This document shows, one piece after another, positions 14,142 through 28,622 of a DNA stretch of 64,000 bases (position 1 is its first letter; every line of letters starts with the position of its first letter). Source of the DNA: Streptomyces dangxiongensis (GTDB lineage: Bacteria > Actinomycetota > Actinomycetes > Streptomycetales > Streptomycetaceae); assembly GCF_003675325.1 (NCBI RefSeq), contig NZ_CP033073.1:3658001-3722000 (forward strand), read 5' to 3'. The notes below the pieces were generated by a model. The model was not told where the DNA came from. It worked only from the letters and a program-made list of their open reading frames with translations, and did not search any database. The translations under genes were made by a program, and so were the position numbers.

Positions 14142-14901
14142 ATGACCGCCCCGATACCCAGGGACATCCCGGACCTGCCCGCGATCCCGGGCCCGCCCCT
14201 GCTACTGCCCGCCCCGGTCCCGGCCACGGCGGTGGTGGCCCCGGTCCGCCGCCCCCAGGTCGCGGTGTTCCGCCTCGTCATCGCCGTGGCGGCGGCCGGC
14301 GGTGTCGCGCTGGAAGCCCTGCTGAGCACCCCGGCCCACAGCCTGAGCTACTTCAGCGTCCAGGCCAACGTCCTGCTGGCCGTGGTGATGCTCCTGTCGG
14401 CGCGCAGAGCCTGGCGGGGCCGCCGCCCCGCTGCCCTCCGCGGTAACAGGCGCCGCGCTCCTCTACATCCTGACCGCGGCGCTGGTCCACCACCTGCTCC
14501 TGGCCCACACGACGCCCCCGTTCTCCATGACCGGCGCGACGACGGCCCCGGAACGCTGGCACGCCCAGTGGGCGGTACTACAGGTCCTCCACACGGTGAT
14601 CCCGGCGGCAGTCCTGCTGGACTGGCTCCTGCTCACCCCCGCGGCCCGCCTGCACCTGCGCCAGACCGCGTCCTGGCTCCTCTACCCCCTGGCCTACCTG
14701 GTCTTCTCCTTCATCCGAGCGGCGTCCCTCCCACCCTCCCACCCGGCCCGCTACCTCTACCCCTTCCTGGACGCAGCCGCCCACGGCTACCGCAGCACCC
14801 TGGCCAACGCCCTCCTCCTGGGCCTCGCGATCTACACCCTGGCCGCCCTCCTCGTGGCCCTGGACCACACCCGCCCCACCCCGGTCCGCCACCGCTGCTG
14901 A
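14142..14901 (+). CDS. Pr6Pr-family membrane protein, +1 frameshift
   Basis: The N-terminal half reads from ATG 14142 through hydrophobic FRLVIAVAAAGGVALEALLS and SYFSVQANVLLAVVMLL to about 14428. The frame one base on then continues LPSAVTGAALLYILTAALVH, HTVIPAAVLLDWLL and YPLAYLVFSFIRA to a TGA at 14901. Together these give the six-segment layout of the FAR-17a/AIG1-like Pr6Pr membrane family, including the typical HTVxPxxxxxDW block. A single surplus C in the CCCC near 14427-14430 accounts for the break (760 nt minus 1 is divisible by 3; 252 residues). Function of the family in bacteria is unknown. Confidence 0.75.
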
Positions 14902-14966
14902 ACCGGATTTCGCCTACAGCCACCGGTGGGCTAAAGTAAACGTCGTCGCCGCGAGAGCAGCGACAT

Positions 14967-15433: not shown

Positions 15434-16349
15434 GAGCGTGTCTCTATGGTGGGCTCATCAGTTGATCGGATGTACCTGTCCGATCAGTGATCACTGATGC
15501 GATGTGGGACCGGATCGAGCCGCTGATGCCGGCCGATCCGGTTCGCGGACGGCGGTGGGCCGACCACCGCCGCACGCTCGAGGCCATCGCGTGGAAGTAC
15601 CGCACCAACTCCCCCTGGCGGGACCTGCCCGACGAGCTGGGCTCGTTCCAGACCGCCCACAAACGGCTGATCAGGTGGGCCGACGACGGCACCTGGGAGA
15701 AGATCCTCACCGCCGTCCTCGCGGCAGCGGACGCCGTCGACGACATCGGCTGGACCGTGTCGGTGGACTCCACCGCCGTCCGGGCCCACCAGCACGCCGC
15801 CGGAGCACTCAAAAAGGGTCCGAAGGCCGCGACGAGCCGGCCGACCACGCACTCGGGTGCTCCCGCGGCGGGCTGAGCACCAAGGTTCACCTCGCCGCGG
15901 ACAGCCACGCGCGGCGCCCTTAGCTCTGGCCGTCACAGCCGGCCAGGCCGGCGACGCGCCCACCTTCGAGACGGTCATGGCCCGCATCCGGGTGCCGAGA
16001 ACCGGCCCCGGCCGGCCCCGGACCCGCCCCACCATGGTCCTGGCCGACCGCGCCTACTCATCCCGCGCGATCCGCGCTCACCTGCGCCGCCGACAGATCC
16101 GCGCGGTCATCCCGCAGCCTTCGGACCAGACCGGCCACCGTCTGCGACGGGGCAGCCAAGGCGGGCGCCCGCCCGGCTTCGACGCGGACGCCTACAAGCA
16201 GCGCAACACCGTCGAGCGGTGCATCAACCGCCTCAAACAGTGGCACGGCCTGGCCACACGATGCGACAAACTCGCCATCGCCTACCAGGCCGCACTCCAC
16301 CTAGCCGCCATCCTCATCTGGACACTACGCTGACCAAAGAGACAGAACC
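15434..16349 (+). mobile_element. IS5-family (IS427-like) insertion sequence, damaged
   Basis: About 916 bp bounded by CTAG on both sides (15431-15434 and 16349-16352), the YTAR-type target duplication expected for this group. Imperfect terminal repeats: AGCGTGTCTCTATGGT on the left against GTTCTGTCTCTTTGGT (reverse complement of the right end). It carries one transposase gene spread over several frames. The left end matches the relic at 20261-20338. Confidence 0.85.
15487..16333 (+). pseudogene. IS5-family DDE transposase, programmed -1 site plus inactivating indel
   Basis: The first frame (15487 on) has the N-terminal DUF4096-like domain and the first catalytic Asp in SVDSTAVRAHQHAAG. At 15810-15816 the slippery CAAAAAG allows a -1 shift into a frame reading GRDEPADHALGCSRGGLSTK. 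That frame then hits TAG near 15921. A third frame continues LALAVTAGQAGDAP, the second Asp in LADRAYSSRAIRAH, and the catalytic Glu in NTVERCINRLKQWHGLA to 16333. The first shift fits the translational frameshifting known in this IS group. The second needs a 2-base excess (or 1-base loss) near 15913-15920, so this copy should not make active transposase. The repaired protein would be 281 residues. Confidence 0.85.
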
Positions 16350-16372
16350 TAGTCGGCCTTCCCAGAGGTTCG

Positions 16373-16816
16373 TCAGCCGAGCCAGGCGAGTGGGTCTTCC
16401 TCGTCCTCTCCGGATTCCCGGACCGTCGTAAAGGTGACAGGGACTCCCAGCTCAGCAAGACCTGCGAGAACGTCTGGCGAGATGTAAAGCCCCGAGCCTG
16501 ACTCGGTAACGCCTGCTACGTCGACCTTCACCGCTTTTCCCGCCTCCCTGAGGGCGTCCAGCGCCGGCTTGCGGGGGCTGAGGATTCTCACAAGTTCCGC
16601 GGCCTGCCCGTCGGCGCCTTCCGAGTGCCGCTCGTCGACGGTGAGCGTGGCCCAACCGGGACCTGAGTAGATGCCCACGCCCTCAGAAGAGGAGATTACT
16701 TCGCTGTCGACGAGTTGAGACTCGATAAGCCAGGAGACAGAGTTCGCTTCCTGACCCGATACGACCAAGGACACGCTTAGGTCATTCCAGGACTTCACTA
16801 TCGCAGCAGACTCCAT
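16373..16816 (-). CDS. DUF4279-like putative immunity protein 2
   Basis: 147 residues. The N-terminus SWNDLSVSLVVSGQEANSVS and the C-terminus LAGLAELGVPVTFTTVRES share the layout of the neighbouring DUF4279-like protein: a beta-rich start, a middle helix and a closing hydrophobic strand after a Leu-rich helix. The last gene of the toxin operon, 15 bp after its paralog. In polymorphic-toxin loci small acidic proteins in this position usually neutralise the upstream effector; that role is inferred from position. Base composition is clearly lower in GC than flanking core genes, consistent with horizontal origin. Confidence 0.65.
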   Translation of the reverse strand: MESAAIVKSWNDLSVSLVVSGQEANSVSWLIESQLVDSEVISSSEGVGIYSGPGWATLTVDERHSEGADGQAAELVRILSPRKPALDALREAGKAVKVDVAGVTESGSGLYISPDVLAGLAELGVPVTFTTVRESGEDEEDPLAWLG

Positions 16817-16831
16817 TCCGTGATCCCCCTC

Positions 16832-17245
16832 TCAGCGTTCGTTCATATTGGCTGCGACCCTGAGCGGGAAGCCCAGAAGGGCGATTCGTTTGATGTCTTC
16901 CGAACGGAGGGCAAGGGTGGAATCGTTCCCGGAGAATCCGAACAGGTTGACGGTCACTTCATATCCCTGTTCCGCGAGCTGCCTGAGTTCAACCCGCTTC
17001 CGTTCCGCGATGGTAAGGATATTGTCCAACTGTTCGTGGAAGCCACGACTGGTGCGCTCGTCGCAACTGATCCTCCACTGCCCATCGATCTCGCCCGGGC
17101 GGTCCCATTTGCCGGGCCCCGGATCGCGCACACCTGTGGGCTCGATATCAAGGAACGACGTGATCTCTTCGTGGCGGAGATCTCTTCCCTTGATGACAAG
17201 CGACACCTCTGTCAACACCCAGTGGCGCTTCTCGATCACAGTCAT
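16832..17245 (-). CDS. DUF4279-like putative immunity protein 1
   Basis: 137 residues. TEVSLVIKGRDLRHEEITSF followed by LDIEPTGVRDPG and GQWRISCDE matches the DUF4279 pattern (strand, ITxxLxxxPT, then a W-containing strand); the C-terminus is IKRIALLGFPLRVAANM. It begins 28 bp after the toxin gene stop (17274) on the same strand. GC content is low for this genome. Inferred to protect against the toxin encoded just upstream; alternatively an orphan remnant of an immunity array. Confidence 0.7.
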   Translation of the reverse strand: MTVIEKRHWVLTEVSLVIKGRDLRHEEITSFLDIEPTGVRDPGPGKWDRPGEIDGQWRISCDERTSRGFHEQLDNILTIAERKRVELRQLAEQGYEVTVNLFGFSGNDSTLALRSEDIKRIALLGFPLRVAANMNER

Positions 17246-17273
17246 ACCTAACTCCTCAAAGGTTCAAGTCATC

Positions 17274-18939
17274 CTACTTGATCTCACGACAGGCTGCCCA
17301 GTGAACATTTCCCATGCCGGGCTTCAGCAGCTCTCCCAGCTGCGCCCTCTGACCCACGGTCGTCGAATCCTCGAACACACTGAAACCGCCACCACCCGAT
17401 GAAACGGGAGGCGCCAATGTGTAATTTGGAACTCGGTCGCCCGCATGGAATGTCTCCGAATATCCTCCTGGGTACACGCCGCGCTCGACGGTCAGGCCGT
17501 TGAGGCCGGGAAGCTGGTCGCCGTGTTGCACGTAGAAAGAAATCGAGGTGCCCTCCGGAACCACGGTCTCACCGGCTCCGGATTCAATGTAGCCATGGCC
17601 TGCGAAGACTTTTCTCTCCATCTGGGCGGCCACCGGAAAGCACCCGATCCGCATAGTACCGGCCATCAGTGTCCGGCCACTTCTTGTTCACGATTTGCGG
17701 GTTGGAGTCGCGCAGCGCCTGCATGACGTCGGCGCGTTCGGGCATGGGGTCCCCGGAACCTCTGGCGGTTTGACGTTCGAGGCCCTCCCGCACTCCGCGT
17801 TGCGCCGCCGATTCCAAGCCCTCCTTGGTCGCCATGCGCAGTCCGCCGCGGGCGAGTCCGGCGCCTTTGGTGCCGATGAGTTCGGGGATTAGGCGGCCGA
17901 TGAACTCGGATGGGTCCTTTTTGAAGCCGTCGACGGCTGCCTGGACAACCCGTTCAGGATGCGAGGCAGTGGAGACGAGGCCGGCCAGCGTCATGTTGAC
18001 GTTCTGGAGGTAGGCGGCCGGGTGGGTGATGTTGTACGGGTCGGTGGGGTTGAGGCCGCGGACGAAGTTGAGCAGTCCGGCCGTGCCCTTGAGTGCGCCG
18101 CCGACGACATGCGTGAGTTCGGTGTTGGCGGCCTGGTAACCGTCCGAGAAGTCCTTGCCCAGTCGCTCCAGGGGCGGTGGTTCGGCGGGAGCGTGCGCGA
18201 GGGCCGCCTTCACCTTGCCCTGCGCCGCGGAGGCGGCCGTGTTGCGCTGTTTACGGGCCTCGGCGAGCTTCTCGGCGGCCGCCTTGACGTCGGCCTTGCC
18301 GGGGTCCTTGAACGGCTCAGGTTCAGGGCCCGGGTCCTCACGCGCCTTGATCTTGGCGTTGTAGGCGTCGACCTTCTTGTTGTACGCGTCGACCGCGTCC
18401 TTGGACGCCTTGACGCCCTTCTTGTAGAGCTCCACGGCCTCCTTGGCCTGACCTTGTGCCCACTTGACGGTATCCGCGTACGACTCCAGCGCCTTCGCCG
18501 CCGCGTCGCACGCCTCAGACGCCCGTGCCCACTCGGCGGGGTGTACGCCGAACTTCTTCCGGAACGCGTCACCGCCGTCGCCCTGCCAACCGGAGGAGTC
18601 GACCTTCCTCAGCCCGGTACTCACCTTGTCGAAGGCTCCGTGGAAGTCCTTCAGGTGCCTGGCACTCTCGCGAATCCTGTCCGGATTGCCGTGGACGAGC
18701 TCGTTGGCCTCCTCCGTCTGACCGAGTTGCTGCTCGCCGGGGGTGGCGCCCAGGTCCGAGGCGACCTCGTCGCCCCAGTCCTCCACACTGTCGGCCCAAT
18801 CGTGCGCACCGACCTTGTCCAGGCCTTCGCCCACTTTGTCCGTGGCCCAGTCGACGCCCTCACCGAGCTTCTTCTTGCCCGCGTCGTAGAGGTCCTCCGC
18901 GCCGCCCAGAAGCGAGTTGGTGAGGTCTCCGAGTCCCAT
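17274..18939 (-). CDS. T7SS-signal polymorphic toxin-like protein with C-terminal Stv-like domain, +1 frameshift
   Basis: From ATG 18939 the first frame gives an N-terminal acidic leader (MGLGDLTNSLLGGAEDLYDA), then a helical WXG100-like T7SS signal region with SSGWQGDGGDAFRKKF. A long coiled-coil segment (YKKGVKASKDAVDAYNKK) and a linker follow. The frame stops at 17584. The neighbouring frame continues KVFAGHGYIESGAGETVVPE, VQHGDQLPGLNGL, RVPNYTLAPP and HWAACREIK to 17274, which resembles the putative adhesin Stv domain. One extra A in GAGAAAAGTC near 17606-17610 joins them into 554 residues. Start overlaps the preceding stop (TGATG). Likely exported by a type VII system; the activity of the Stv domain is unproven. 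Confidence 0.75.
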
Positions 18940-19598
18940 CAGCCTTCAGCGCCCGGTTGCTCGGCCGCCTTGGCCCGCTCCTCAGGAGAGGGACCGAAGG
19001 TGTCGTCCAGGAAATGGCCGTACTCCTGGTCCGACATGCCGAGCGCGTCGTGCAGATTCTCGGGGTTGAGGCCCAGCGGGCCGACCGTGTGCGAGGTCAT
19101 CACGTCCCGGCCGGTGTCCTTCCATGCCTGTCCGCTGTTGGCCAGCGCCTTGTCGAAGGACTCCTTGCTGTAGTCCACGTTGCCGCCGTAGGGACCGGAC
19201 TTCGCGATGTCAGCCCCAGCCCATCTTCTCCACGTCCTCCTCGGAGGCGTACGGATTACCGATGGCCGAGTTGGTGACGACCTTGAAGCTGCCCTCGATG
19301 TACTGATCGGTCTCGTAGTACGTGCCCGCCGACAGACCCGTCTCTCGGCGAACCCGTTGCCCTCGTTGATCAGGGATCGCACGCCCCACTCCCAGCGCTC
19401 GCAGAACGACTTGAACTCACCCGTCAACCCCTCGTGGCCGAGTTCGAGCCCGGTCAGGGCGATGTCGGAGAACCCGCGCCCGGCCCCGGCCTCGCCCACC
19501 ATGCCCAGCTCCTTCAACTCGCCAAGGGCCTCCGTCAGGCCTTTTGCGATCAGAGCGAGCCCATCCGCTTTGAGGTTCTTGCCCCCACCGCTGGTCAT
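18939..19598 (-). CDS. T7SS-associated protein with two compensating frameshifts
   Basis: From ATG 19598 (MTSGGGKNLKADGLALIAKG) the N-terminal half reads well to NEGNGFAE. About 40 residues are then out of frame; the correct frame there reads TGLSAGTYYETDQYIEGSFK and ends KMGW. The original frame resumes with ADIAKSGPYGGNVDYSKESF to the stop at 18939. A 1-base loss near 19340 and an extra G in the GGGG near 19216 explain this, giving 219 residues. It sits between the SseB-like gene (ATGA overlap) and the T7SS toxin (TGATG overlap), an operon order repeated in many Streptomyces T7SS loci. Function unknown, probably an effector partner. Confidence 0.7.
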   Translation of the reverse strand: MTSGGGKNLKADGLALIAKGLTEALGELKELGMVGEAGAGRGFSDIALTGLELGHEGLTGEFKSFCERWEWGVRSLINEGNGFAERRVCRRARTTRPISTSRAASRSSPTRPSVIRTPPRRTWRRWAGADIAKSGPYGGNVDYSKESFDKALANSGQAWKDTGRDVMTSHTVGPLGLNPENLHDALGMSDQEYGHFLDDTFGPSPEERAKAAEQPGAEG

Positions 19599-20125
19599 GC
19601 CACTTCCCCCGTCTCGAAGTCCACCGCCGCTTCGTCGGGTACGACGCCTCGCACCGGTGGGAACACCATCCCGTCCGGCCCGTCCGCACAGTCCAGCGCC
19701 ACCCCACAGGGCACTCCGGCGGCCGGGACCGCCACATCCAGCAGCCGCGCCCCCAGGATCGTCTGATACGTCCACTCCCGGGCGAACTCGCCCCGCGCCT
19801 GTGCGTAACGCGCGAGCGCCTGCCCATCGGAGAAAGCCAGGATGAACCGCACGCCGTTCAAATCGGCGGTCAACAACCCCCGCTCATGGTCCGGGCGGTC
19901 CGCCTCGCCCAGCGGCACCAATACCGCCGTACGCCGGAACTTGTCCAGCAACTCCGCGAACCGCTTCCTGCCCGCGTCCGCTTCGGGATCCCCGGCAGCC
20001 GGCTGCGGGGCCGGCTCAGCCGGTGCCGGGACGTCCATGTCCACGTAATCGGACAGGCGGGATCTCGGTTTGTGCGAGTTTGCCGTACTGTCTTCCCCGT
20101 GGTGAAACATGGTCGCCATCATCAC
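19595..20125 (-). CDS. SseB-family protein of the T7SS module
   Basis: 176 residues. After a Pro/Ala linker the SseB N-terminal-like domain runs from about residue 55: RKRFAELLDKFRRTAVLVPL, LNGVRFILAFSDGQALARYA and a terminal block MVFPPVRGVVPDEAAVD. SseB-like proteins head many actinobacterial type VII effector operons; their role is not known, possibly chaperoning. The stop overlaps the next ATG (ATGA). ATG 20125 is the first of several Met codons (MMMATM), so the start could be a few codons later. Confidence 0.75.
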   Translation of the reverse strand: MMMATMFHHGEDSTANSHKPRSRLSDYVDMDVPAPAEPAPQPAAGDPEADAGRKRFAELLDKFRRTAVLVPLGEADRPDHERGLLTADLNGVRFILAFSDGQALARYAQARGEFAREWTYQTILGARLLDVAVPAAGVPCGVALDCADGPDGMVFPPVRGVVPDEAAVDFETGEVA

Positions 20126-20510: not shown

Positions 20511-20981
20511 TCAGTCCTCGTCGGGGTCGAGGACCCGGCCCTTGAGTTTGACGGGGTTCGCGGCGCCCACGCGGAGTTCGCCGTCGGTGTAGCGGCCCGG
20601 TGTCGCGCCGTCCGTGGCGGTGACCTGGGCCGCGTAGCCGATGCACTCCTGGTTGGTGGAGAGGTACGGGTTGTGGGTGAAGGACAGGGTGCGGCCCTGG
20701 TTGCCCAGGGTGCCCTGGGTGGTCTGCATGTTGCCCTTGGCCTGAAGGGTGTTGACATCGTGGTAGGCCCAGGACAGCCAGCCCGTGAAGACGAAGCCCG
20801 TGGGGGCCTTGAGGGTGAAGGTGATGTCGCCGGGGTTCACCGGGTCGGGGACGGTGCTGAGGACGCCGAAGCTGAGGTGGGCCGGGACTCCTCCCGGGGC
20901 GTCCTCGACGATGCCCTGCTGGAGGATGTACAGCTTGTTCTCGGACCCCGGTTGGACGGGGGCGTGGGTCTGCGTGGCCAT
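20511..20981 (-). CDS. Small beta-rich protein with APTGF/PGRYTDG domain (copy 1)
   Basis: 156 residues from ATG 20981, preceded by GAAGGG. Unknown family. The body reads IVEDAPGG, then FTLKAPTGFVFTGWLSWAYH, GRTLSFTHNPYLST, GATPGRYTDGELRVG and VKLKGRVLDPDED at the C-terminus. These blocks recur in the same order in the protein at 27097 and in the C-terminal part of the NHL protein at 24785. No signal peptide or membrane segment; predicted alternating strands suggest a beta-sandwich. Last gene of the 24548-to-20511 operon, 116 bp after the preceding gene. Function not known. Confidence 0.75.
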   Translation of the reverse strand: MATQTHAPVQPGSENKLYILQQGIVEDAPGGVPAHLSFGVLSTVPDPVNPGDITFTLKAPTGFVFTGWLSWAYHDVNTLQAKGNMQTTQGTLGNQGRTLSFTHNPYLSTNQECIGYAAQVTATDGATPGRYTDGELRVGAANPVKLKGRVLDPDED

Positions 20982-21097
20982 GGGTTTTTCCCTTCTGTGG
21001 ATGGGTGTGTCCGCTTGGGCGGATCCGCCGGTGGCGGGCTCGGGGGGCGCGGGCAGCTCCGCTCGTGACCTGTGGGGGGCGAGACGGGCGCCACGCG

Positions 21098-21821
21098 TCA
21101 GGCGGAGGGGGCGTCCTCGGAGGGCGTCTCCTCGGAGGGGGTCTCCTCGGAAGGGGCGTGGTCGGACAGGAGCGGGCCCAGGACCGCGAGGGTGCCGAGG
21201 ATGACGTCCTCGTAGAGGTAGAACCCCGCCTCCAGGGGCGGTGGTTCGGGGGCGGTGGTCCGGGTGGGGGACGGCGGGGGTGTGGTGGTGTGTTCGGTGT
21301 CGTCCTCCGCTCCGGCCCCGGGGGGCGGACGTGCCGAGGAGGTCGGTGAGGTCCTGTGCGGCGCCCAGGAAGGCGGTGCGGGCGGTGGTGGCCAGCACGC
21401 GCAGGGGAAGGTCGAGGGCGGCGGCGGTGCGCTGGCCGGGGACGGCTCTCGTCGCGGCCGGGGCCTCGGAGGTGGCGGCGGCCAGCCACTGGACCGGGAA
21501 GGTGGCGGCGGAGACGATCCGCTCGGCGGGCAGCACGGGCGGGGGGTCGCCGTCGACCATCAGGTCCTCCCACTCCATCAGGTCGAACAGGAACTGGCCG
21601 CCCTTGTAGAGGGGCCAGGGCCGGACCGTGTCGAGGAGCAGCCGGGCGCGGTCGGGGGTGTCGCGGCGCAGCGCCACGCCGTGCCGGGCCAGGGTGCACA
21701 GGCACTGCCGCAGCGAGCCGTTGATCTGGCCGAGGAAGGCGAAGGCCCGGTGGTCGGTGGGGGTGAGCGGGCCGGTGGGGGTGGGGTCGGCCGTCGGGTG
21801 GGTGCTCGTGGTGGGGTTCAC
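21098..21821 (-). CDS. Unknown helical protein, +1 frameshift near the 3' third
   Basis: GTG 21821 overlaps the polyprenyl synthase stop (GTGA). The N-terminal part is Thr/Pro rich, then HRAFAFLGQINGSLRQCLCT, WPLYKGGQFLFDLMEWEDLM and a helical run ending AAQDLTDLLG. The next frame continues AEDDTEHTTTPPPSP, a Pro-rich linker, EAGFYLYEDVILGTLAVLGP and a repetitive acidic tail (PSEETPSEETPSED) to TGA at 21098. A surplus base in the C6G4 run near 21322-21331 explains the break; the repaired length is 240 residues. I recognise no family. Tight coupling to the polyprenyl synthase suggests a shared pathway or complex. Confidence 0.65.
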
Positions 21822-23470
21822 AGTGGCCTCGAGGTGACGTAGTGGGCGATCTGCCGCAGCACGGCTTTGCCTTCGTTCTCGGGGATGACCTGGAGGTCTT
21901 CTTCGAAGCGGGCGATGCCTTCAGCGGCGAGCCGGTCGGCGAGTGCGGTGGCGTACTCGATGGAGCCGTGCCGGCGCATGGCGGCGAGGAGTTCCTCGGC
22001 GTGCTGCTGGGTCTTGTCGGTACGGCGCTGCCGCAGGACGTCGAGGAGGCGGGGGCGCTCGTAGGCGTGCGCGGTGCGGAACAGATGGATCAGCATCACC
22101 GTGCGCTTGCCTTCGAGCAGGTCACCGAGGGGTTCCTTGCCGTAGAGGGCCTCCTCGCCGACCAGGTTCAGGATGTCGTCCTGGATCTGGAAGGCGATGC
22201 CGATCAGGCGGAACGCCTCGTCGAACCGGCCCAGTACGGCCGGGTCGGTCACGCCGGCGCAGACGGCGCCGATGCGGCACGGGCTGATGCAGGTGTACCA
22301 GCCGGTCTTCTTGGTGCTCATCGTGAAGTAGGCGTCGTCGGCCTCGGGGACGACTTCGTGGCGGATCCAGCCCAGTTCCATGGCCTGGCCCTCGATGGAC
22401 TCCCGGCACATGTGGACCGCCTCGCGGATGAGGCCGAGGGTGCGGGCGAGGCCGAGCGTCTCGAGGTTGGACAGGACGGCGTCGACGGCGAGCAGGTTCA
22501 GCCCGTCGCCGACGTTGACCGCCAGGCCCAGCCCGTGTTCCTCGTGCATGGTGGGCATGCCGCGCCGGTGCGTGGACTCGTCGGCGATGTCGTCGTGGAC
22601 GAGGAAGCCGTTGTGGAACAGCTCCAGTGCGGCGGCGGCGCGTACGGCGTCGTCGGGGCGTCCGCCGAACGCTGCGCACGCGGCGATGGTCAGGGTGGGC
22701 CGCAGGCCCTTGCCCTGGCGGGCGGGGTAGGAGCGCATCAGGTCGTACAGCTCGGCACGCGGCTCACGGTCCGGCAGCAGCCGTTCGATCTCCTCGCCGG
22801 TGCGGGCCCGGCACCGGCGCATGGTCTCCATCAGGTCCGCGTCGCGGACGGTGTCCTCCAGCGTCCAACTGGTGCTGGTGCGGCCGTCCCAGAGCATGCG
22901 CGGCGCCCGTACGGTGGTGTCGCCGACCAGTACGAGGGGTGCGGGGGCGTCCTCGGGAGCGCGCCGGGCGAGGAAGTCCAGCGCCGTCCAGTCGACCGGG
23001 TCGGCGGCCGGCTCCGGGGCGGCGGGGGCCGCGCTGCCCCACAGTTGTGGGGCCTGTTCGCGGTAGGCGCCCCAGAGTTCCTGCATGCTGCGCAGGCCCG
23101 CCGCGCGCTGGGACAGCAGTGTGAAGGCCCGCCACACGGCGAGGGTGTCGTCCTGGGAGCCGCGGACGTCGAGGCTGTCGGACAGCACCTGGTCGACGGG
23201 CGGGCGCTGGAGGTCGAACAGCAGGTTCATCGCCCGGTTGTCGAAGGCGACCTCGACGTCGGGATCCGGGCAGCGGTCCTGGTGTACGACGAGACGGCTG
23301 TGCCGCGCGGTGAGCGTGGCGTGGCTGCCGTCGTCGAAGTGCAGGCCGAGCCGGATGCCGCGCAGGTGGTCGGCGGCGGCGGCGAGGACGGCCGGGGCCC
23401 GGTCGGACAGGGCGGCCACGGTCTCGTCCAGCAGGCCGGCACCGGTGAGAGCGGGGGCGGTCTCAGTCAT
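21818..23470 (-). CDS. SCP2-like domain fused to polyprenyl diphosphate synthase
   Basis: 550 residues from ATG 23470, overlapping the upstream stop by 8 bp. Residues about 35-125 resemble an SCP2 sterol-carrier fold (GIRLGLHFDDGSHATLTARH, then DQVLSDSLDVRG). Residues about 215-550 are a trans-isoprenyl diphosphate synthase with KGLRP (254-258), the first Asp-rich motif DDIAD (293-297), GQAMELGW (361-368) and the second motif DDILN (431-435), where the last Asp is Asn. It should condense IPP with allylic diphosphates, product chain length unknown. The fused lipid-binding-like domain is unusual. Neighbours suggest a terpenoid-related role. Confidence 0.85.
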   Translation of the reverse strand: MTETAPALTGAGLLDETVAALSDRAPAVLAAAADHLRGIRLGLHFDDGSHATLTARHSRLVVHQDRCPDPDVEVAFDNRAMNLLFDLQRPPVDQVLSDSLDVRGSQDDTLAVWRAFTLLSQRAAGLRSMQELWGAYREQAPQLWGSAAPAAPEPAADPVDWTALDFLARRAPEDAPAPLVLVGDTTVRAPRMLWDGRTSTSWTLEDTVRDADLMETMRRCRARTGEEIERLLPDREPRAELYDLMRSYPARQGKGLRPTLTIAACAAFGGRPDDAVRAAAALELFHNGFLVHDDIADESTHRRGMPTMHEEHGLGLAVNVGDGLNLLAVDAVLSNLETLGLARTLGLIREAVHMCRESIEGQAMELGWIRHEVVPEADDAYFTMSTKKTGWYTCISPCRIGAVCAGVTDPAVLGRFDEAFRLIGIAFQIQDDILNLVGEEALYGKEPLGDLLEGKRTVMLIHLFRTAHAYERPRLLDVLRQRRTDKTQQHAEELLAAMRRHGSIEYATALADRLAAEGIARFEEDLQVIPENEGKAVLRQIAHYVTSRPL

Positions 23471-24548
23471 GGGCGCCCCCGGCGAACTCCACGATGCCCT
23501 CGGCACGGAAGGCGATAGGGCGTCCGCCGACCCGGCCCTCCACGGTGAACGGGCCGAGGGTCTCGTGCACGCTGAACGGGTGCAGGCTCGTCTCCGACGG
23601 GTTGGCGATCCGGCCCGCCGTGTGCGAGCGGAAGTCCAGGACGAGACAGTCGTCGCCGAGCCGGGCGGTGATCAGCAGCCGGCCGGGCACCGCGGCCGTC
23701 GGCGGGGTGCCCAGCGTGTCCGCCAGCGGCGGCACCATCGCCACGCGGTCGCGGTCCAGGCTGCCGCTGACCGCGACCCGCAGGTTGCGGCGGGGGAAGT
23801 GACGGATCACGCGCCCCTGACTCCACAGCATCACCGACCCGTTGGCCGCGTCCGCCGGGCGCTCGGGCTGGATCAGGGTGAAGACCACCGCCGACGGCGG
23901 GGCCGCGTCGGCCGGCCCGGACGGGTCGTTGACGAATCCGAACACCCAGCCGCCGAGCGTGGGCCAGGACCAGCGACCGCGTACCCGTTCGTGGTAGCCC
24001 AGCAGGTCCGTCTCCGTGACCGTGCCGTCGCCGTGCCGCAGAGTGCCGGTTCCCAGGACCCCGGGCTCCGACTGCCACCGCAGGTGCTCGTCGTCGCCGA
24101 ACGGCGCGCACTGCGAGGTGCAGGGCCTGCTGGTGCGGGTCAGCCGTACGTCGGCCGCGGGCGCCGCCGACCGGGCCGCCACCCGGAACGCGCCGGGCCG
24201 GCCGTGCGGATGCGGCCACCGGAAGGCCGACCACGGCAGTTCGGGCTGGTCGGCGTTGAACTGTGTCGCGCTCCAGCCGTGCCCCTCCGCGTGGACGAGC
24301 AGGATCGCCATGTGCTGTCCCTCGGCCGCCGTGCCGGTGCCGCTGCGCCGCCCGGTGGCCGGAGCGCCCGGGTCGGCGTAGACCTGGCCGGTGGCGGATC
24401 CCAGGACGGACAGGTTGGCGATCAGTGCCTGCCGGCCGCACCGGGACAGGAAGGCGTAGTGCAGCCACTTCCGGTCGAGTGGATGCGCGAGCGGGGCGTG
24501 CGGGAAGGGACCCGGGGGCCCGAGCCTGGGAAGGGTGGGCGTGGACAC
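23463..24548 (-). CDS. CrtC/AttH-like (lipocalin-type) protein
   Basis: 361 residues from GTG 24548. It reads DRKWLHYAFLSRCGRQALIA, SATGQVYAD, WSATQFNAD, WSWPTLGGWVFGFVNDPSG, then VVFTLIQPE and VSVHE-like blocks near the end (LHPFSVHETLGPFTVEGRVG). Two consecutive beta-barrel-like halves and Trp-rich motifs recall the carotenoid 1,2-hydratase (CrtC), AttH and tocopherol-cyclase superfamily, enzymes that act on isoprenoids. The match is by pattern only and should be treated as tentative. First gene of a four-gene operon with a polyprenyl synthase. ATG 24572 is an alternative start; the promoter (next entry) favours a leaderless GTG. Confidence 0.55.
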   Translation of the reverse strand: MSTPTLPRLGPPGPFPHAPLAHPLDRKWLHYAFLSRCGRQALIANLSVLGSATGQVYADPGAPATGRRSGTGTAAEGQHMAILLVHAEGHGWSATQFNADQPELPWSAFRWPHPHGRPGAFRVAARSAAPAADVRLTRTSRPCTSQCAPFGDDEHLRWQSEPGVLGTGTLRHGDGTVTETDLLGYHERVRGRWSWPTLGGWVFGFVNDPSGPADAAPPSAVVFTLIQPERPADAANGSVMLWSQGRVIRHFPRRNLRVAVSGSLDRDRVAMVPPLADTLGTPPTAAVPGRLLITARLGDDCLVLDFRSHTAGRIANPSETSLHPFSVHETLGPFTVEGRVGGRPIAFRAEGIVEFAGGAHD

Positions 24549-24555
24549 GTTTCGA

Positions 24556-24594
24556 ACGCTAACGCACTGCATCCGTAATGTCGCAATCTGCGAC
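24556..24594 (-). promoter_or_regulatory. Candidate promoter with operator-like palindrome
   Basis: On the minus strand TAGCGT (-10 like) ends 7 bases before GTG 24548. TTGCGA (-35 like) lies 19 bases further up and forms the right half of GTCGCAGATTGCGAC (24580-24594), a perfect 6-bp dyad with a 3-base centre. A regulator bound there would cover the -35 element. Confidence 0.4.
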
Positions 24595-24702
24595 CTTCGA
24601 GCGGGTGAGCTGGGAGCAGAGAAACGTTTACTTCCGTATTGGGGGTTTGGGGCCGTCACCGTCGCAAGCGCCGCGCGGCGGGCGGCCGGGTCCCGGCCAC
24701 CC

Positions 24703-24743
24703 GTGAGCCGTCTGTGGCGGACGGGCCGCCACAGACGGCTCAC
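24703..24743. terminator. Terminator of the NHL gene
   Basis: Perfect 18-bp stem GTGAGCCGTCTGTGGCGG / CCGCCACAGACGGCTCAC (24703-24720, 24726-24743) with a 5-base loop, 42 bp past the NHL-gene stop and just ahead of the promoter of the next operon. Confidence 0.85.
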
Positions 24744-24784
24744 GGTCTCGTACGTGCCCCCGCGTTTCCTCGCTTCCGCCGGTG

Positions 24785-26444
24785 CTACTCGTCGTCCGCC
24801 AGCACGCTCGCCTTCAGGCGCACCTCGGGCCGGCCCGAGATCACCGCCCGGCCGTCGGTGTACCGGCCCGGCTCGGCGTCGGCCAGGGCCCGGATGCCGA
24901 GCGTGTAGACCAGGGCCGCCGCCGGATGCTCCCGGGTGTTCAGCCGGGGTTCGTCCGTGACGGCCAGCGATCTGCCGTCGTCCCGCACGGTCGCCGTCGG
25001 TGCCCCCGCCAGGGAGCACCGTGCGATCCTCGCGGTAATACGCGCTGGTCGCCCGGCCGTCGAAGACGAAGCCCGTCGGGGCCCTGAAGTGGTGCTCCAC
25101 CCGTCCCGGGGTCCACGGATCGGCGGACGAGACCCGTACGTGGAGCAACTCGTCGCCGCCTCGGGGGACTTCGACACCGACCTCCTGACGCACCAGCAGC
25201 CGTGCGGGCGGGGCGGACGGGGCCGGTGGGGGAGCTGGTGTGGGCTGCGGGTTGTGCTGAGGCTCCGGTTCCTCCGCCCCGGAAGAGGTGGCCGGGGTGG
25301 TGGTGAGGGGGAGCGCGACGATCCGGTGGTGGAAGTTGTCCGCCACGAGCAGCCGGTGGCCGGCCGGGTCCATGGCGAGACCGCACGGATAGGCCAGCGC
25401 CGTGCCGACGACCGTATCGGCTGTACCGGTCGTGTCGGGGGTGCCGGTCGTGTCGGCCGTGGCAGCGGTGCCCCTGCTCCCCACCTCACCGGCCGCCGGA
25501 TCGCGCCCCGCGGTCCCCGCGGGCCCCGCGACGACCCTGGCGGCTCCGTCGGCCAGCCGCCACACCCGGTGCGCGTTCATGTCGGCGACGTAGACCGCCC
25601 CTTGGCCGTCGACCGCCACCGCGCACGGTGCGTTCCAGTCGACGGCCGTGGCATCGGTGCCGGCGTCGGTGCCCGCACCCGTCGGCCCCGCCAGTATCCG
25701 GAGCGTCCCGTCCGTGCCCAGCAGCAGCACCCGGCGGCCCGCCGGGTCGGCGATGTACAGTCGCCCGGCCGCGTCGACCGCGAGGCCCGCCGGCAGGAAC
25801 GTCTCGCCGGCGTGGGCCGTACCGGGGCCACCGGACCGTCCGGATGCCGCGACGACCGTGCTGATGACGCCGTCGTCGCCGATCCTGCGCACCCTGCGAC
25901 CGCCCGCCTCGCCGATGTACAGCGATCCGGTGCCGTCGACGGCCACGGCGCAGGGGGCGTCCAGCCGGGCCCGGTCGGCGGGGCCGCCGTCGCCGTTCCC
26001 GTCGTCGCCATCGCCGCCGTCTCGGGAGCCGTCCCCCGCGACGGTGTCGATGACACCCGACGGGTCGATCCGGCGGATCCGGTGGTTCGTCTCGTCGGCG
26101 ACGAGGACGCCTCCGTCCGGGGCGACCGCCAGGGCGGCCGGGAAGCCCAGGCGGGCCCGCGTCGCGTCCGCGCCGTCCCCGGCGAAACCCCGCAGCCCGT
26201 CACCGGCGACCGTGGTGAGCGTGCCGGAGCCGTCGATCCGGCGTACCCGGTGGTTGGCGTGGTCGGCGACGAAGACCGCACCGCCGCACACGGCCACGGC
26301 CGCGGGAAAGGCGAGCTGTCCTGCCGGTGCGGGCCCGCCGTCCCCGGAGAATCCGGCGGTGCCGTTCCCCGCGACGGTGCCCAGCGGGCCGTCCGCGTCC
26401 GGAGCCGCCCGCTCGTCCGGGCGGGCCGGGGCCCCGGCCGTCAT
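24785..26444 (-). CDS. NHL-repeat propeller protein with APTGF/PGRYTDG domain (copy 2), +1 frameshift
   Basis: From ATG 26444 about six NHL repeats run to residue 370: each has a GTVAGNG/GDG...FP.A(V/L)AV...VADxxNHR(V/I)RRI pattern, e.g. FVADHANHRVRRIDGSG and LVADETNHRIRRIDPSG. A Pro-rich linker (EPEPQHNPQPTPAPPPAP) leads to the shared domain with HHFRAPTGFVFDG, then in the next frame DDGRSLAVTDEPRLNT, AEPGRYTDGRAVISG and LKASVLADDE. One extra G in the GGGGG near 25007-25013 splits it; the repaired length is 552 residues. NHL propellers bind proteins or RNA; no signal peptide is visible. Partner and function unknown. Confidence 0.8.
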
Positions 26445-26524
26445 GCCGTCACCACCCGGCACGGGCGCGGTGTGGCCCCGGTGGCGTCCGCCCCCTTCCA
26501 CTTCCACGGCCTCGTCTCCCGCAT
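26441..26524 (-). CDS. Possible 27-residue peptide coupled to the NHL gene
   Basis: ATG 26524 has a strong Shine-Dalgarno sequence (GAAGGAG, 7 bases upstream). The frame reads MRETRPWKWKGADATGATPR and ends with TGA overlapping the NHL start codon (ATGA). It is Trp/Lys/Arg rich at its N-terminus with one Cys. It may be a leader peptide that controls translation of the NHL gene or a real small protein. The same frame is open further upstream, so part of the evidence is the ribosome site rather than the frame itself. Confidence 0.4.
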   Translation of the reverse strand: MRETRPWKWKGADATGATPRPCRVVTA

Positions 26525-27096
26525 GTCGGTCTCCTTCCGAGCCGTCGTTGGCACTCCCCTGCATACCGGCCGGACCGGTCCCGCGGGAGCGGCGCGACCG
26601 AGCGCTCCACCCGCACGAGGGAGCGGCCGCGGGCGGCGGGCGGCAACGGGGTCCACCGGAGTGGGCGGTGAGCGGGGGCGGCGGGCATCAGGGGGCGCCT
26701 GCGCCTCCGGTGCGGCTCGGGGCCGTCGCGGTTCGTACGCCCGCACTCCCCCGTCGCACTCCCGCGTGCCTCAAGTCCACTCGAACAAGTGACGCAGAAT
26801 CGATCCGGCATTCTCGAACGGCGGAACGGCGGCATACCGCCCGCGGAGCCGGGCTAACGATTCCCCCGAGACGGCCCGGTGCGTGCCGTGATGCCCGCGC
26901 GAACGCCCCGCCCGAAGCCGCGGGCGGCGTCCTGCCTCACGTCCTCTGCCTTCCGGACGCCGCTCCCCATGGCGTCCCGCAACTGGTGGACCACGCGCCG
27001 TGCGGTGCGGCGGGCACCGCCCGCCGTCCGGGGCTCCCGCACCGGACGTCCCCCTTCGTCACATGCTTCGATCACAGTCCCAGGAGGAACGCGGAG
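26525..27096. promoter_or_regulatory. Divergent spacer NHL gene / 27097 gene
   Basis: 572 bp without a convincing gene; it must contain promoters for both directions. The least GC-rich part is about 26765-26830, a likely promoter zone. No dyad or known operator was recognised. Confidence 0.4.
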
Positions 27097-27708
27097 ATGA
27101 CCACCGACGTGCAGGCCAAGAAGGAAGCCTATAAGCGGGGCGAGGAGCAGGGCCGCGCCGACGCTCTCGCCGGGCGGCCCTACGCCGACCCGCCGCGAGA
27201 CGGTGCGCGCGGCGAGAAGGACCAGTACGCGAACGGTTACGACTGGGGTTACGAACAGGGACGCGCGCAGAAGCTTGACCTGGTCATCTGGCAGGAGGGC
27301 GGCGTCGAGGACGCCCCCGGGGGCCTCGGCACCACCGTCAACGTCTGTGTGCGCACGCCGAACTGGAGCGAGACGGTCGACGCCGGTGAACGCGAGCACG
27401 TCTTCACCGCGCCCACCGGGTTCCGCTGGAACGGGGTGGTGGGCGCCCAGTACAAGCGCATGGACCAGACGACGCGGGGCAACCTGCCCCCTGTCCGGGC
27501 CGAGGTCAGCCAGGACGGGCGCACGCTGACCTTCACCTACCACGTGCACCTGAACACGACCGGCGACGACAAGGACTGCCTCGTCTACACCTGCGGCCTG
27601 GAGGCCGCCGACGGCGCCACGCCCGGCCGCCGCACCGACGGCGTCGCCCAGATCGGCACCGCGCCGCCGGCCAAGCTCAAGGCCGAGGTCATCGAGGACG
27701 AGGACTGA
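27097..27708 (+). CDS. Protein with charged N-terminus and APTGF/PGRxTDG domain (copy 3)
   Basis: 203 residues from ATG 27097, with AGGAGG 9 bases upstream. Residues 1-60 are polar and helical with two similar YxxGxEQGR motifs (AYKRGEEQGRADALAGRPYA and YDWGYEQGRAQ). The rest is the shared domain: GGVEDAPGG, HVFTAPTGFRWNGVVGAQYK, DGRTLTFTYHVHLNT, ADGATPGRRTDGVAQIG and AKLKAEVIEDED. Most similar to copy 1 at 20511 in the VEDAPGG and DED ends. Followed after 47 bp by the lamin-tail-domain gene on the same strand. Unknown function; no export signal. Confidence 0.8.
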   Translation: MTTDVQAKKEAYKRGEEQGRADALAGRPYADPPRDGARGEKDQYANGYDWGYEQGRAQKLDLVIWQEGGVEDAPGGLGTTVNVCVRTPNWSETVDAGEREHVFTAPTGFRWNGVVGAQYKRMDQTTRGNLPPVRAEVSQDGRTLTFTYHVHLNTTGDDKDCLVYTCGLEAADGATPGRRTDGVAQIGTAPPAKLKAEVIEDED

Positions 27709-27755
27709 GGGCGAGGACCGAGGACCGAGGACCACGAGAGCAGGAAGCAGACATC

Positions 27756-28622
27756 ATGACCACCGTCGTCACCTCCGGCGTCTTTCCCTCCACCACTCCG
27801 GCCGTCTCACCGCTCGACGGCCTGGGCACCGCGGACATCAGGTGGGGCAGCAACAACTCCCAGAGCGGCTACCAGTTCCGCGGGGCGGCCGCGGACGTCC
27901 AGCTCGACGGCACCGAGTTCGTCATCGGCACCTTCGTGCACCGCAACGTCCCCACGAACGTCACCCCGAGCGTGTTCGACGTCCACCTGACCATCAACGT
28001 CATGTTCGAGGACGGCAGCACCACCGACCTGAGCTTCAGCTTCCACCACAACGAGACACCCAACACGACCAACTCCAGCCCCGCGGACGACGATCTGGTC
28101 GACCTCCAGACCTTCGTGCACCCGCAGCCGGTCACGATCGACGGCAAGCAGTACCGGGCGGTCCTGAGCGGGTTCAAGCGGGGCGGTCAGATCGTCCAGC
28201 AGTTCCGCAGCCCCGAGGGCGGCATCAACTTCGCCGAGGTGGTCTGCGCGTTCGCGTTCGACGAGCCCGACGTGGTCATCTCCGGTCTGCGATACCAGGG
28301 CACCGGACCGGCGCAGGCCGACGAGTACGTCGAGATCCACAACAAGGGCGGCGCGCCGCAGGACCTGACCGGCTGGGCCGTGCAGTGCAAGCCCACCGGG
28401 TATTCCTTCCCCTTCCCCCCGGGGACGGTGATCCAGCCCGGCCAGCGCTACCGGGTCTACACGAACGAGACCCACCAGCAGTACGGCGGGTTCTCCTTCA
28501 ACTCCTCCGGGGAGGTCTGGCGGGACCAGGGCGGCATCGCCCGCCTCGTCGCGGACGACGGCTTCGTCGTGGACCAGCACCCGTACCTCGACAAGGGGTT
28601 CAACAAGTCCGGAACGCCGTAG
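27756..28622 (+). CDS. Choice-of-anchor-K-like plus lamin tail domain protein
   Basis: 288 residues from ATG 27756. Residues about 20-170 read IRWGSNNSQSGYQFRGAAAD, EFVIGTFVHRNVPTN and VFDVHLTINVMFEDGS, the pattern of the choice-of-anchor K domain. Residues about 178-285 form a lamin-tail domain: VVISGLRYQGTGPAQADEYV, EIHNKGGAPQDLTGWAV, PPGTVIQPGQRYRVYTNE and VWRDQGGIARL. No signal peptide or membrane anchor is seen, although related domains are usually on secreted proteins. Co-directional with copy 3 of the unknown domain, probably one operon. Confidence 0.8.
   Translation: MTTVVTSGVFPSTTPAVSPLDGLGTADIRWGSNNSQSGYQFRGAAADVQLDGTEFVIGTFVHRNVPTNVTPSVFDVHLTINVMFEDGSTTDLSFSFHHNETPNTTNSSPADDDLVDLQTFVHPQPVTIDGKQYRAVLSGFKRGGQIVQQFRSPEGGINFAEVVCAFAFDEPDVVISGLRYQGTGPAQADEYVEIHNKGGAPQDLTGWAVQCKPTGYSFPFPPGTVIQPGQRYRVYTNETHQQYGGFSFNSSGEVWRDQGGIARLVADDGFVVDQHPYLDKGFNKSGTP

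What the first reader, a model, noticed from the sequence alone, without database searches (positions are those of the whole stretch)
20511..28622. Candidate undescribed system: three copies of an unknown domain around an isoprenoid operon
The proteins at 20511-20981, 24785-26444 (C-terminal part) and 27097-27708 share ordered blocks APTGF, a Y-containing strand, DGR/GRxL...LNT or LST, PGR(Y/R)TDG and a terminal LKA.V...DED. I cannot assign this roughly 130-residue domain to a known family. The copies are attached to different modules (alone, behind an NHL propeller, behind a charged helical N-terminus). They surround a polyprenyl synthase fusion, a CrtC/AttH-like protein and a lamin-tail protein. 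The clustering argues for one functional system.
Basis: partly seen in the sequence, partly recalled or inferred. Interest (0 to 1): 0.82.

Follow-up and report, generated by a model that had tools for sequence, protein, structure and literature searches.

The report
Ig-like domains beside isoprenoid operon
A Streptomyces-type gene cluster pairs enzymes that look able to make and modify an isoprenoid lipid with several proteins built on one uncatalogued, antibody-like (Ig-type) domain, and related bacteria keep the two sets side by side, although the domain also occurs elsewhere without the enzymes.

The parts
20511..20981 (-). Copy A: stand-alone X domain (156 aa)
   Evidence: ORF; found with C at E 2.4e-22; 74-92% identical orthologue beside the operon, or in L083 beside C/LTD, in the other complete clusters
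21101..21821 (-). Unknown protein ('Unk') overlapping the polyprenyl synthase stop; split by a frame change in the window
   Evidence: frame analysis and relatives; conserved next to the synthase; no Pfam hit for the relative in L080
21818..23473 (-). Polyprenyl (geranylgeranyl-type) diphosphate synthase with ~220-residue N-terminal extension
   Evidence: PF00348 E 6.5e-53; best solved match GGPP synthase 1wmw, E 6.4e-50; DDIAD and DDILN motifs; N-terminus unassigned, only a sub-threshold Alkyl_sulf_C match at E 0.1
23463..24548 (-). CrtC/AttH-fold protein, candidate prenyl-chain hydratase/cyclase/lyase
24785..26444 (-). Copy B: NHL propeller followed by X, interrupted by a frame change near 24990-25010
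   Evidence: PF01436 E 1.3e-25; X pieces; one frame in 11 of 11 complete relatives
27097..27708 (+). Copy C: ~60-residue charged N-terminus plus X
   Evidence: query; N-terminus has no Pfam match but its motif recurs in the diverged cluster L080
27756..28622 (+). choice-of-anchor K domain plus lamin-tail domain protein
   Evidence: NF038131 E 1.6e-34; PF00932 E 3.3e-18; next to C in the 12 complete clusters

Best explanation
X is an Ig-like beta-sandwich accessory domain, found so far in Streptomyces, Kitasatospora and Embleya, whose commonest home in my searches is the C-terminus of NHL-propeller proteins. In one Streptomyces lineage it was duplicated and reshuffled next to a small isoprenoid operon: alone (A), behind an NHL propeller (B), behind a charged N-terminus (C), or behind a lectin-like part plus DUF11. 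Proposed working: the synthase makes a short-chain prenyl diphosphate (inferred from family and Asp motifs); the CrtC/AttH-fold protein hydrates, cyclises or eliminates on that chain (inferred from fold and partner gene); the X proteins and the lamin-tail/choice-of-anchor protein are non-enzymatic binding or scaffold modules that carry, display or organise the product or the enzymes (inferred from a cohesin/adhesin-like fold and binding-type partners). Their N-termini do not look like signal peptides by eye, so they may act in the cytoplasm or leave by a non-classical route; this was not settled. Shown: homology, fold, conserved linkage. Inferred: product, binding role, location.
For: Linkage outlives rearrangement: L018 has the lectin/DUF11/X gene and A directly after Unk on the same strand; L083 has A moved beside C and LTD; L080 (CrtC 67%, GGPPS 73%, Unk 47% identical) still has a C-like X protein about 1.3 kb beyond Unk, on the other strand with one gene between. 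Co-occurrence in one 295-genome genus sample: X in 10, CrtC-like in 5 (two partial), both in 4; hypergeometric 3e-6, or 8e-5 without the window's genome, not corrected for shared ancestry. In an order sample 7 of 293 have CrtC-like, and X is in 5 of the 6 others, once weakly. A, B, C and lectin-type copies form one clade, local support 0.98. Fold. Enzymes. Overlapping CrtC, GGPPS and Unk frames suggest one transcript.
Against: Six of 10 X-positive genomes have no CrtC-like match, with all first-look candidates scored, and the window genome has an X pair away from any isoprenoid gene: X does not need the enzymes. Most clusters are close relatives (GGPPS mostly above 90% identical), so much of the synteny may be plain inheritance. 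The CrtC catalytic pattern HxW...YxD is in 0 of 30 family members. In L018 the NHL protein carries no X. The diverged C_L080 does not group with the C clade. The hydropathy test for signal peptides is weak: 0 of 78 Met-starting X proteins reach 1.9, but a possible TAT protein used for comparison scored only 1.64, some of the 78 are fragments, and the NHL part of B reaches 2.10 inside the propeller. The lectin match is below Pfam's cut-off. No partner, product or expression is known.
Confidence: 0.45

Rival explanations
1. Passenger model: X is an accessory domain common in Streptomyces; it duplicated locally beside the isoprenoid operon and is kept there by descent, with no shared function.
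For: 81 of the 85 X proteins listed carry the NHL model (that search started from an NHL-X-X protein, so it is biased towards such lengths), and in the six NHL-X genomes examined no CrtC-like gene was found and no such synthase within 20 kb. The second pair in the window's genome stands alone. One cluster, L049, has lost NHL-X and C and truncated CrtC and LTD while keeping GGPPS, Unk and A.
Against: Linkage persists in L080 at 67-73% enzyme identity and across rearrangements in L018 and L083; A, B, C and lectin-type X form a cluster-specific clade.
Confidence: 0.35
2. Two adjacent systems: the enzymes with Unk form one metabolic unit, while NHL-X, C, LTD and A form a separate Ig/lectin-type adhesive or coat system that happens to abut it.
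For: C and LTD are on the other strand from the operon; lamin-tail, choice-of-anchor K, DUF11, DUF642 and NHL are binding-type modules (the role is recalled); the lectin/DUF11/X plus A pair occurs without the enzymes at the 117 kb site.
Against: In L018 the lectin/DUF11/X gene and A lie in line directly after GGPPS and Unk on the same strand.
Confidence: 0.15
3. The X domain is itself catalytic (an Ig-fold enzyme in the manner of AvmM, titled as catalysing a macrocyclisation) and tailors the product.
For: AvmM 7fe0 is among the Foldseek hits, E 2.4e-4.
Against: TM only 0.42; BslA and a collagen-binding adhesin domain rank higher, and adhesin, cohesin and pilin domains fill most of the list. 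In the 23-member alignment the only invariant polar residues are Q7 and D122, besides A46, P47, G49, G82 and G123, which is thin for an active site.
Confidence: 0.05

Closest known systems
Cohesins, pilin and adhesin Ig-like domains (2vo8, 6kgc, 8wxd, 3irp) and TTHA1873 (7wrk)
   Different: 6-15% identity in these five; no Pfam match; sortase motif and dockerin were not searched for
DUF11 (PF01345) repeats
   Same: Lie next to X in the lectin/DUF11/X proteins
   Different: Profile comparison of X with those DUF11 stretches shows no relation (probability 0.8%)
NHL-X-X proteins of Streptomyces (e.g. P0139, P0150)
   Same: Same X domain, two copies
   Different: No CrtC-like gene in the six genomes with NHL-X proteins examined and no such synthase within 20 kb
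CrtC/AttH-fold enzymes: carotenoid 1,2-hydratase, kievitone hydratase, CghA/Fsa2/Phm7, 25-phosphosteroid lyase
   Different: 7-14% identity; CrtC's HxW...YxD set absent in 30 of 30
Short-chain trans-polyprenyl diphosphate synthases (GGPP synthase 1wmw; IdsA NF040698; family 2 encapsulin cargo NF041169)
   Same: PF00348 domain and both Asp-rich motifs
   Different: All 16 NCBIfam scores stay below their cut-offs; extra ~220-residue N-terminus

Membership tests
Trans-polyprenyl diphosphate synthase (PF00348) | Pfam model above gathering score | tested here: met
   180 bits against a cut-off of 27
Trans-polyprenyl diphosphate synthase (PF00348) | Two Asp-rich motifs | tested here: met
   DDIAD at residue 294 and DDILN at 432 of the translated stretch; the second has N in place of the last D
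Trans-polyprenyl diphosphate synthase (PF00348) | Known chain length or product | not testable with these tools
   No NCBIfam model reaches its cut-off
CrtC/AttH fold enzymes | CrtC/AttH fold | tested here: met
Carotenoid 1,2-hydratase CrtC (PF07143) | Pfam match | tested here: not met
   No Pfam family at E up to 1 for the window protein; for two relatives at E up to 10 only one unrelated weak match each
Carotenoid 1,2-hydratase CrtC (PF07143) | Catalytic HxW...YxD residues (PMC4717167) | tested here: not met
   0 of 30 aligned members with a 20-35 residue spacer; a looser HxxW...YxE pattern in 20 of 30
Ig-like beta-sandwich superfamily | Fold of X | tested here: met
Cohesin | Pfam sequence match | tested here: not met
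   No cohesin model among the 20 families that any of 23 members matched
Cohesin | Dockerin partner | not tested
   Not looked for
DUF11 | PF01345 match to X itself | tested here: not met
   Not among the families matched by the 23 members; hhalign against neighbouring DUF11 stretches 0.8%
SCP2-like lipid-binding domain (N-terminus of the synthase) | Family match | tested here: inconclusive
   Only Alkyl_sulf_C (a related fold, recalled) at E 0.1, below cut-off

The most novel reading that the evidence does not exclude
The X proteins build a leaderless, cohesin-like Ig scaffold (NHL propeller, lamin-tail, lectin-like and DUF11 modules as interchangeable arms) that houses or coats a dedicated isoprenoid pathway, i.e. 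a protein-scaffolded prenyl-lipid factory or carrier particle unlike known bacterial metabolons.
Probability: 0.1. Interest if true: 0.75.

Novelty: new variant of a known kind. Interest (0 to 1): 0.45.

Why it matters
It gives an uncatalogued domain family a fold, a first taxonomic range and a set of architectures; the source names of the 101 X proteins recovered follow their other parts (NHL repeat, SMP-30, PknD, leucine-rich repeat, TIGR01451 repeat) or say hypothetical, and none names X. It also marks a small isoprenoid operon with a CrtC/AttH-fold protein whose relatives at 50-55% identity reach a cyanobacterium, a Roseiflexaceae bacterium and a Rhodobacter, so the product could be sought by ordinary expression. 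If the X proteins do bind the enzymes or product, this would be an unusual Ig-type scaffold in bacteria.

Tried and rejected
Chance or composition as the source of the shared blocks: rejected. X as a known Pfam/NCBIfam family: none. X as DUF11: rejected. X in phages or plasmids: no match; CrtC-like in plasmids: none. A ribosome-modulation-factor-like N-terminus of C was considered from memory; no Pfam match, so not claimed. X against solved structures by sequence: best E 0.53. CrtC-like against PDB by sequence: nothing at E up to 10. CrtC-like profile in the class: only the window's own of 394 genomes; in the phylum two weak 29-31% matches besides the own, of 198. X in the phylum sample: own genome plus one weak match, E 4e-4, of 296. 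In all these samples only a few first-look candidates per genome were scored (at most 13 in 48, 6 in 73 and 89, 5 in 88), so the counts are lower bounds; all candidates were scored. The hydropathy test does not discriminate well and is not used as proof of missing signal peptides. Literature: searches returned no paper; others returned 2, 1 and 2. Only PMC4717167 was opened (abstract, section list and found passages); the other four were seen as listings with the start of the abstract. I do not claim that nothing is in print, only that these searches of open papers did not find it. A conserved non-coding block between B and C was seen but not tied to a regulator. Neighbours of the CrtC-like gene outside Streptomyces could not be read, because no loci with a close match outside the genus were returned.

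Full report
WHAT IS THERE. The window lies in an 8.16 Mb genome (G000:C2:3658001-3722000); its closest protein and DNA relatives are named Streptomyces, so I take it as Streptomyces. Copy B, read from 26444 to 24785 on the minus strand, is not one open frame: the NHL propeller and the first half of X are in one frame and the second half in another. The change sits in a run of G. In 11 of 11 other clusters where the whole NHL-X gene is held, both parts share one frame. The next unknown gene (21821 to about 21101) is split in the same way and in one frame in 12 of 12 relatives where both marker motifs were found. Two nearby broken frames at G/C runs suggest assembly errors rather than biology; I could not check reads.

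HOW FAR IT REACHES. Sixteen proteins found with copy C and 85 found with the tandem X region of an NHL-X-X protein (limited by length and to the 7997 best candidates) all contain X by a profile built from them; 67 of these 101 have two copies at a domain E of 0.01. Organism names given are Streptomyces, Kitasatospora and Embleya. Of the 85, 81 carry the NHL model; P0186 carries PF00362, P0210 PF02369 and PF09134, and P0142 and P0149 none (their N-terminal parts read like VWA, Ig and DUF642 modules, recalled). In a 295-genome sample of the genus 10 have X; in a 296-genome sample of the phylum the window's genome and one weak match. Six of those 10 genomes carry X on NHL proteins, have no CrtC-like match (all candidates scored) and no synthase of this type within the 20 kb examined.

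THE LINKAGE. I compared 16 clusters, counting the window and counting contigs held twice once: L009-L017, the WELS2 pair L008/L019, L018, L049, L080, L083 and L084. Twelve hold all seven genes (in WELS2 over two contigs). L014 lacks A at a contig end. L049 shows a deletion: a CrtC fragment abuts an LTD fragment and NHL-X and C are gone, while GGPPS, Unk and A remain. L018 has an NHL protein without X, then CrtC, GGPPS, Unk, the lectin/DUF11/X gene and A in line; the lectin match there is below Pfam's cut-off. L083 has A moved next to C and LTD. L080 (67% CrtC, 73% GGPPS, 47% Unk) has a C-like protein with the same N-terminal motif about 1.3 kb beyond Unk, on the other strand with one gene between, beside a DUF642 protein, and a BBE oxidase with a sub-threshold TAT match divergent from CrtC. 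In the genus sample CrtC-like occurs in 5 of 295 and X in 10 of 295, both in 4; hypergeometric 3e-6, or 8e-5 leaving out the window's genome. Two of the five CrtC matches are partial, one of them (G275) in a genome where no X was found, and relatedness is not corrected. In the order sample 7 of 293 have CrtC-like; of the six others, X is found in 5, in G713 weakly. In a tree of 87 X domains (28 of the 101 proteins plus cluster copies), A, B, C and the lectin-type copies form one clade (support 0.98), with C_L080 outside it.

HOW IT MOST LIKELY WORKS. Shown: homology, fold, conserved neighbourhood. Inferred: the synthase makes a prenyl diphosphate, the CrtC/AttH-fold protein modifies the chain, and X proteins with LTD act as binding or scaffold modules. 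The binding role rests on the fold and on the partners of X (NHL, DUF11, DUF642 neighbour, lamin-tail and choice-of-anchor neighbour), which are known as non-enzymatic modules (recalled). The N-termini do not look like signal peptides by eye, but my hydropathy test is not decisive: a possible TAT protein scored 1.64, within the range of the X proteins (maximum 1.78 of 78). I give this reading 0.45, the passenger model 0.35, two abutting systems 0.15 and a catalytic X 0.05.

NOVELTY. The fold is common; the sequence family is unnamed in the libraries searched. The cluster is a new combination of known kinds. It is worth a bench test because both halves are easily assayed.

Noticed in passing
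window 24990-25010 and ~21310: Two frame changes at G/C runs in neighbouring genes that are open in relatives; by eye other ORFs of the window (18939-19775 minus, 14142-14939 plus) also seem to change frame, which suggests assembly indels.
   Followed up: partly
L007:9979-12182: Second X locus of the same genome: lectin-like/DUF11/X protein followed by an A-type X protein, with a protein that reads like DUF11 repeats (15487-17265, not scanned) upstream and no GGPPS or CrtC hit within the 20 kb examined.
   Followed up: partly
L049:10992-11746: A CrtC C-terminal fragment directly abuts an LTD C-terminal fragment: a deletion has removed NHL-X and copy C.
   Followed up: no
L080:7821-15956: Diverged version of the cluster with a BBE-type FAD oxidase bearing a sub-threshold TAT match and a DUF642 coiled-coil protein.
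   Followed up: partly
window 26445-27096: Conserved non-coding block (around CACTCGAACAAGTGACGC) between copy B and copy C in the 12 clusters aligned; regulator unknown.
   Followed up: no
L043:5967-9451 and L044:8088-12667: Two NHL-X-X loci lie beside a gene that reads like a UDP-GlcNAc 2-epimerase (VGTRPEA motif, recalled; ORFs), a possible link of X to surface sugars.
   Followed up: no
window 17584-19775: Genes resembling a secreted polymorphic-toxin type locus (read from sequence, recalled, not tested) adjoin the cluster.
   Followed up: no
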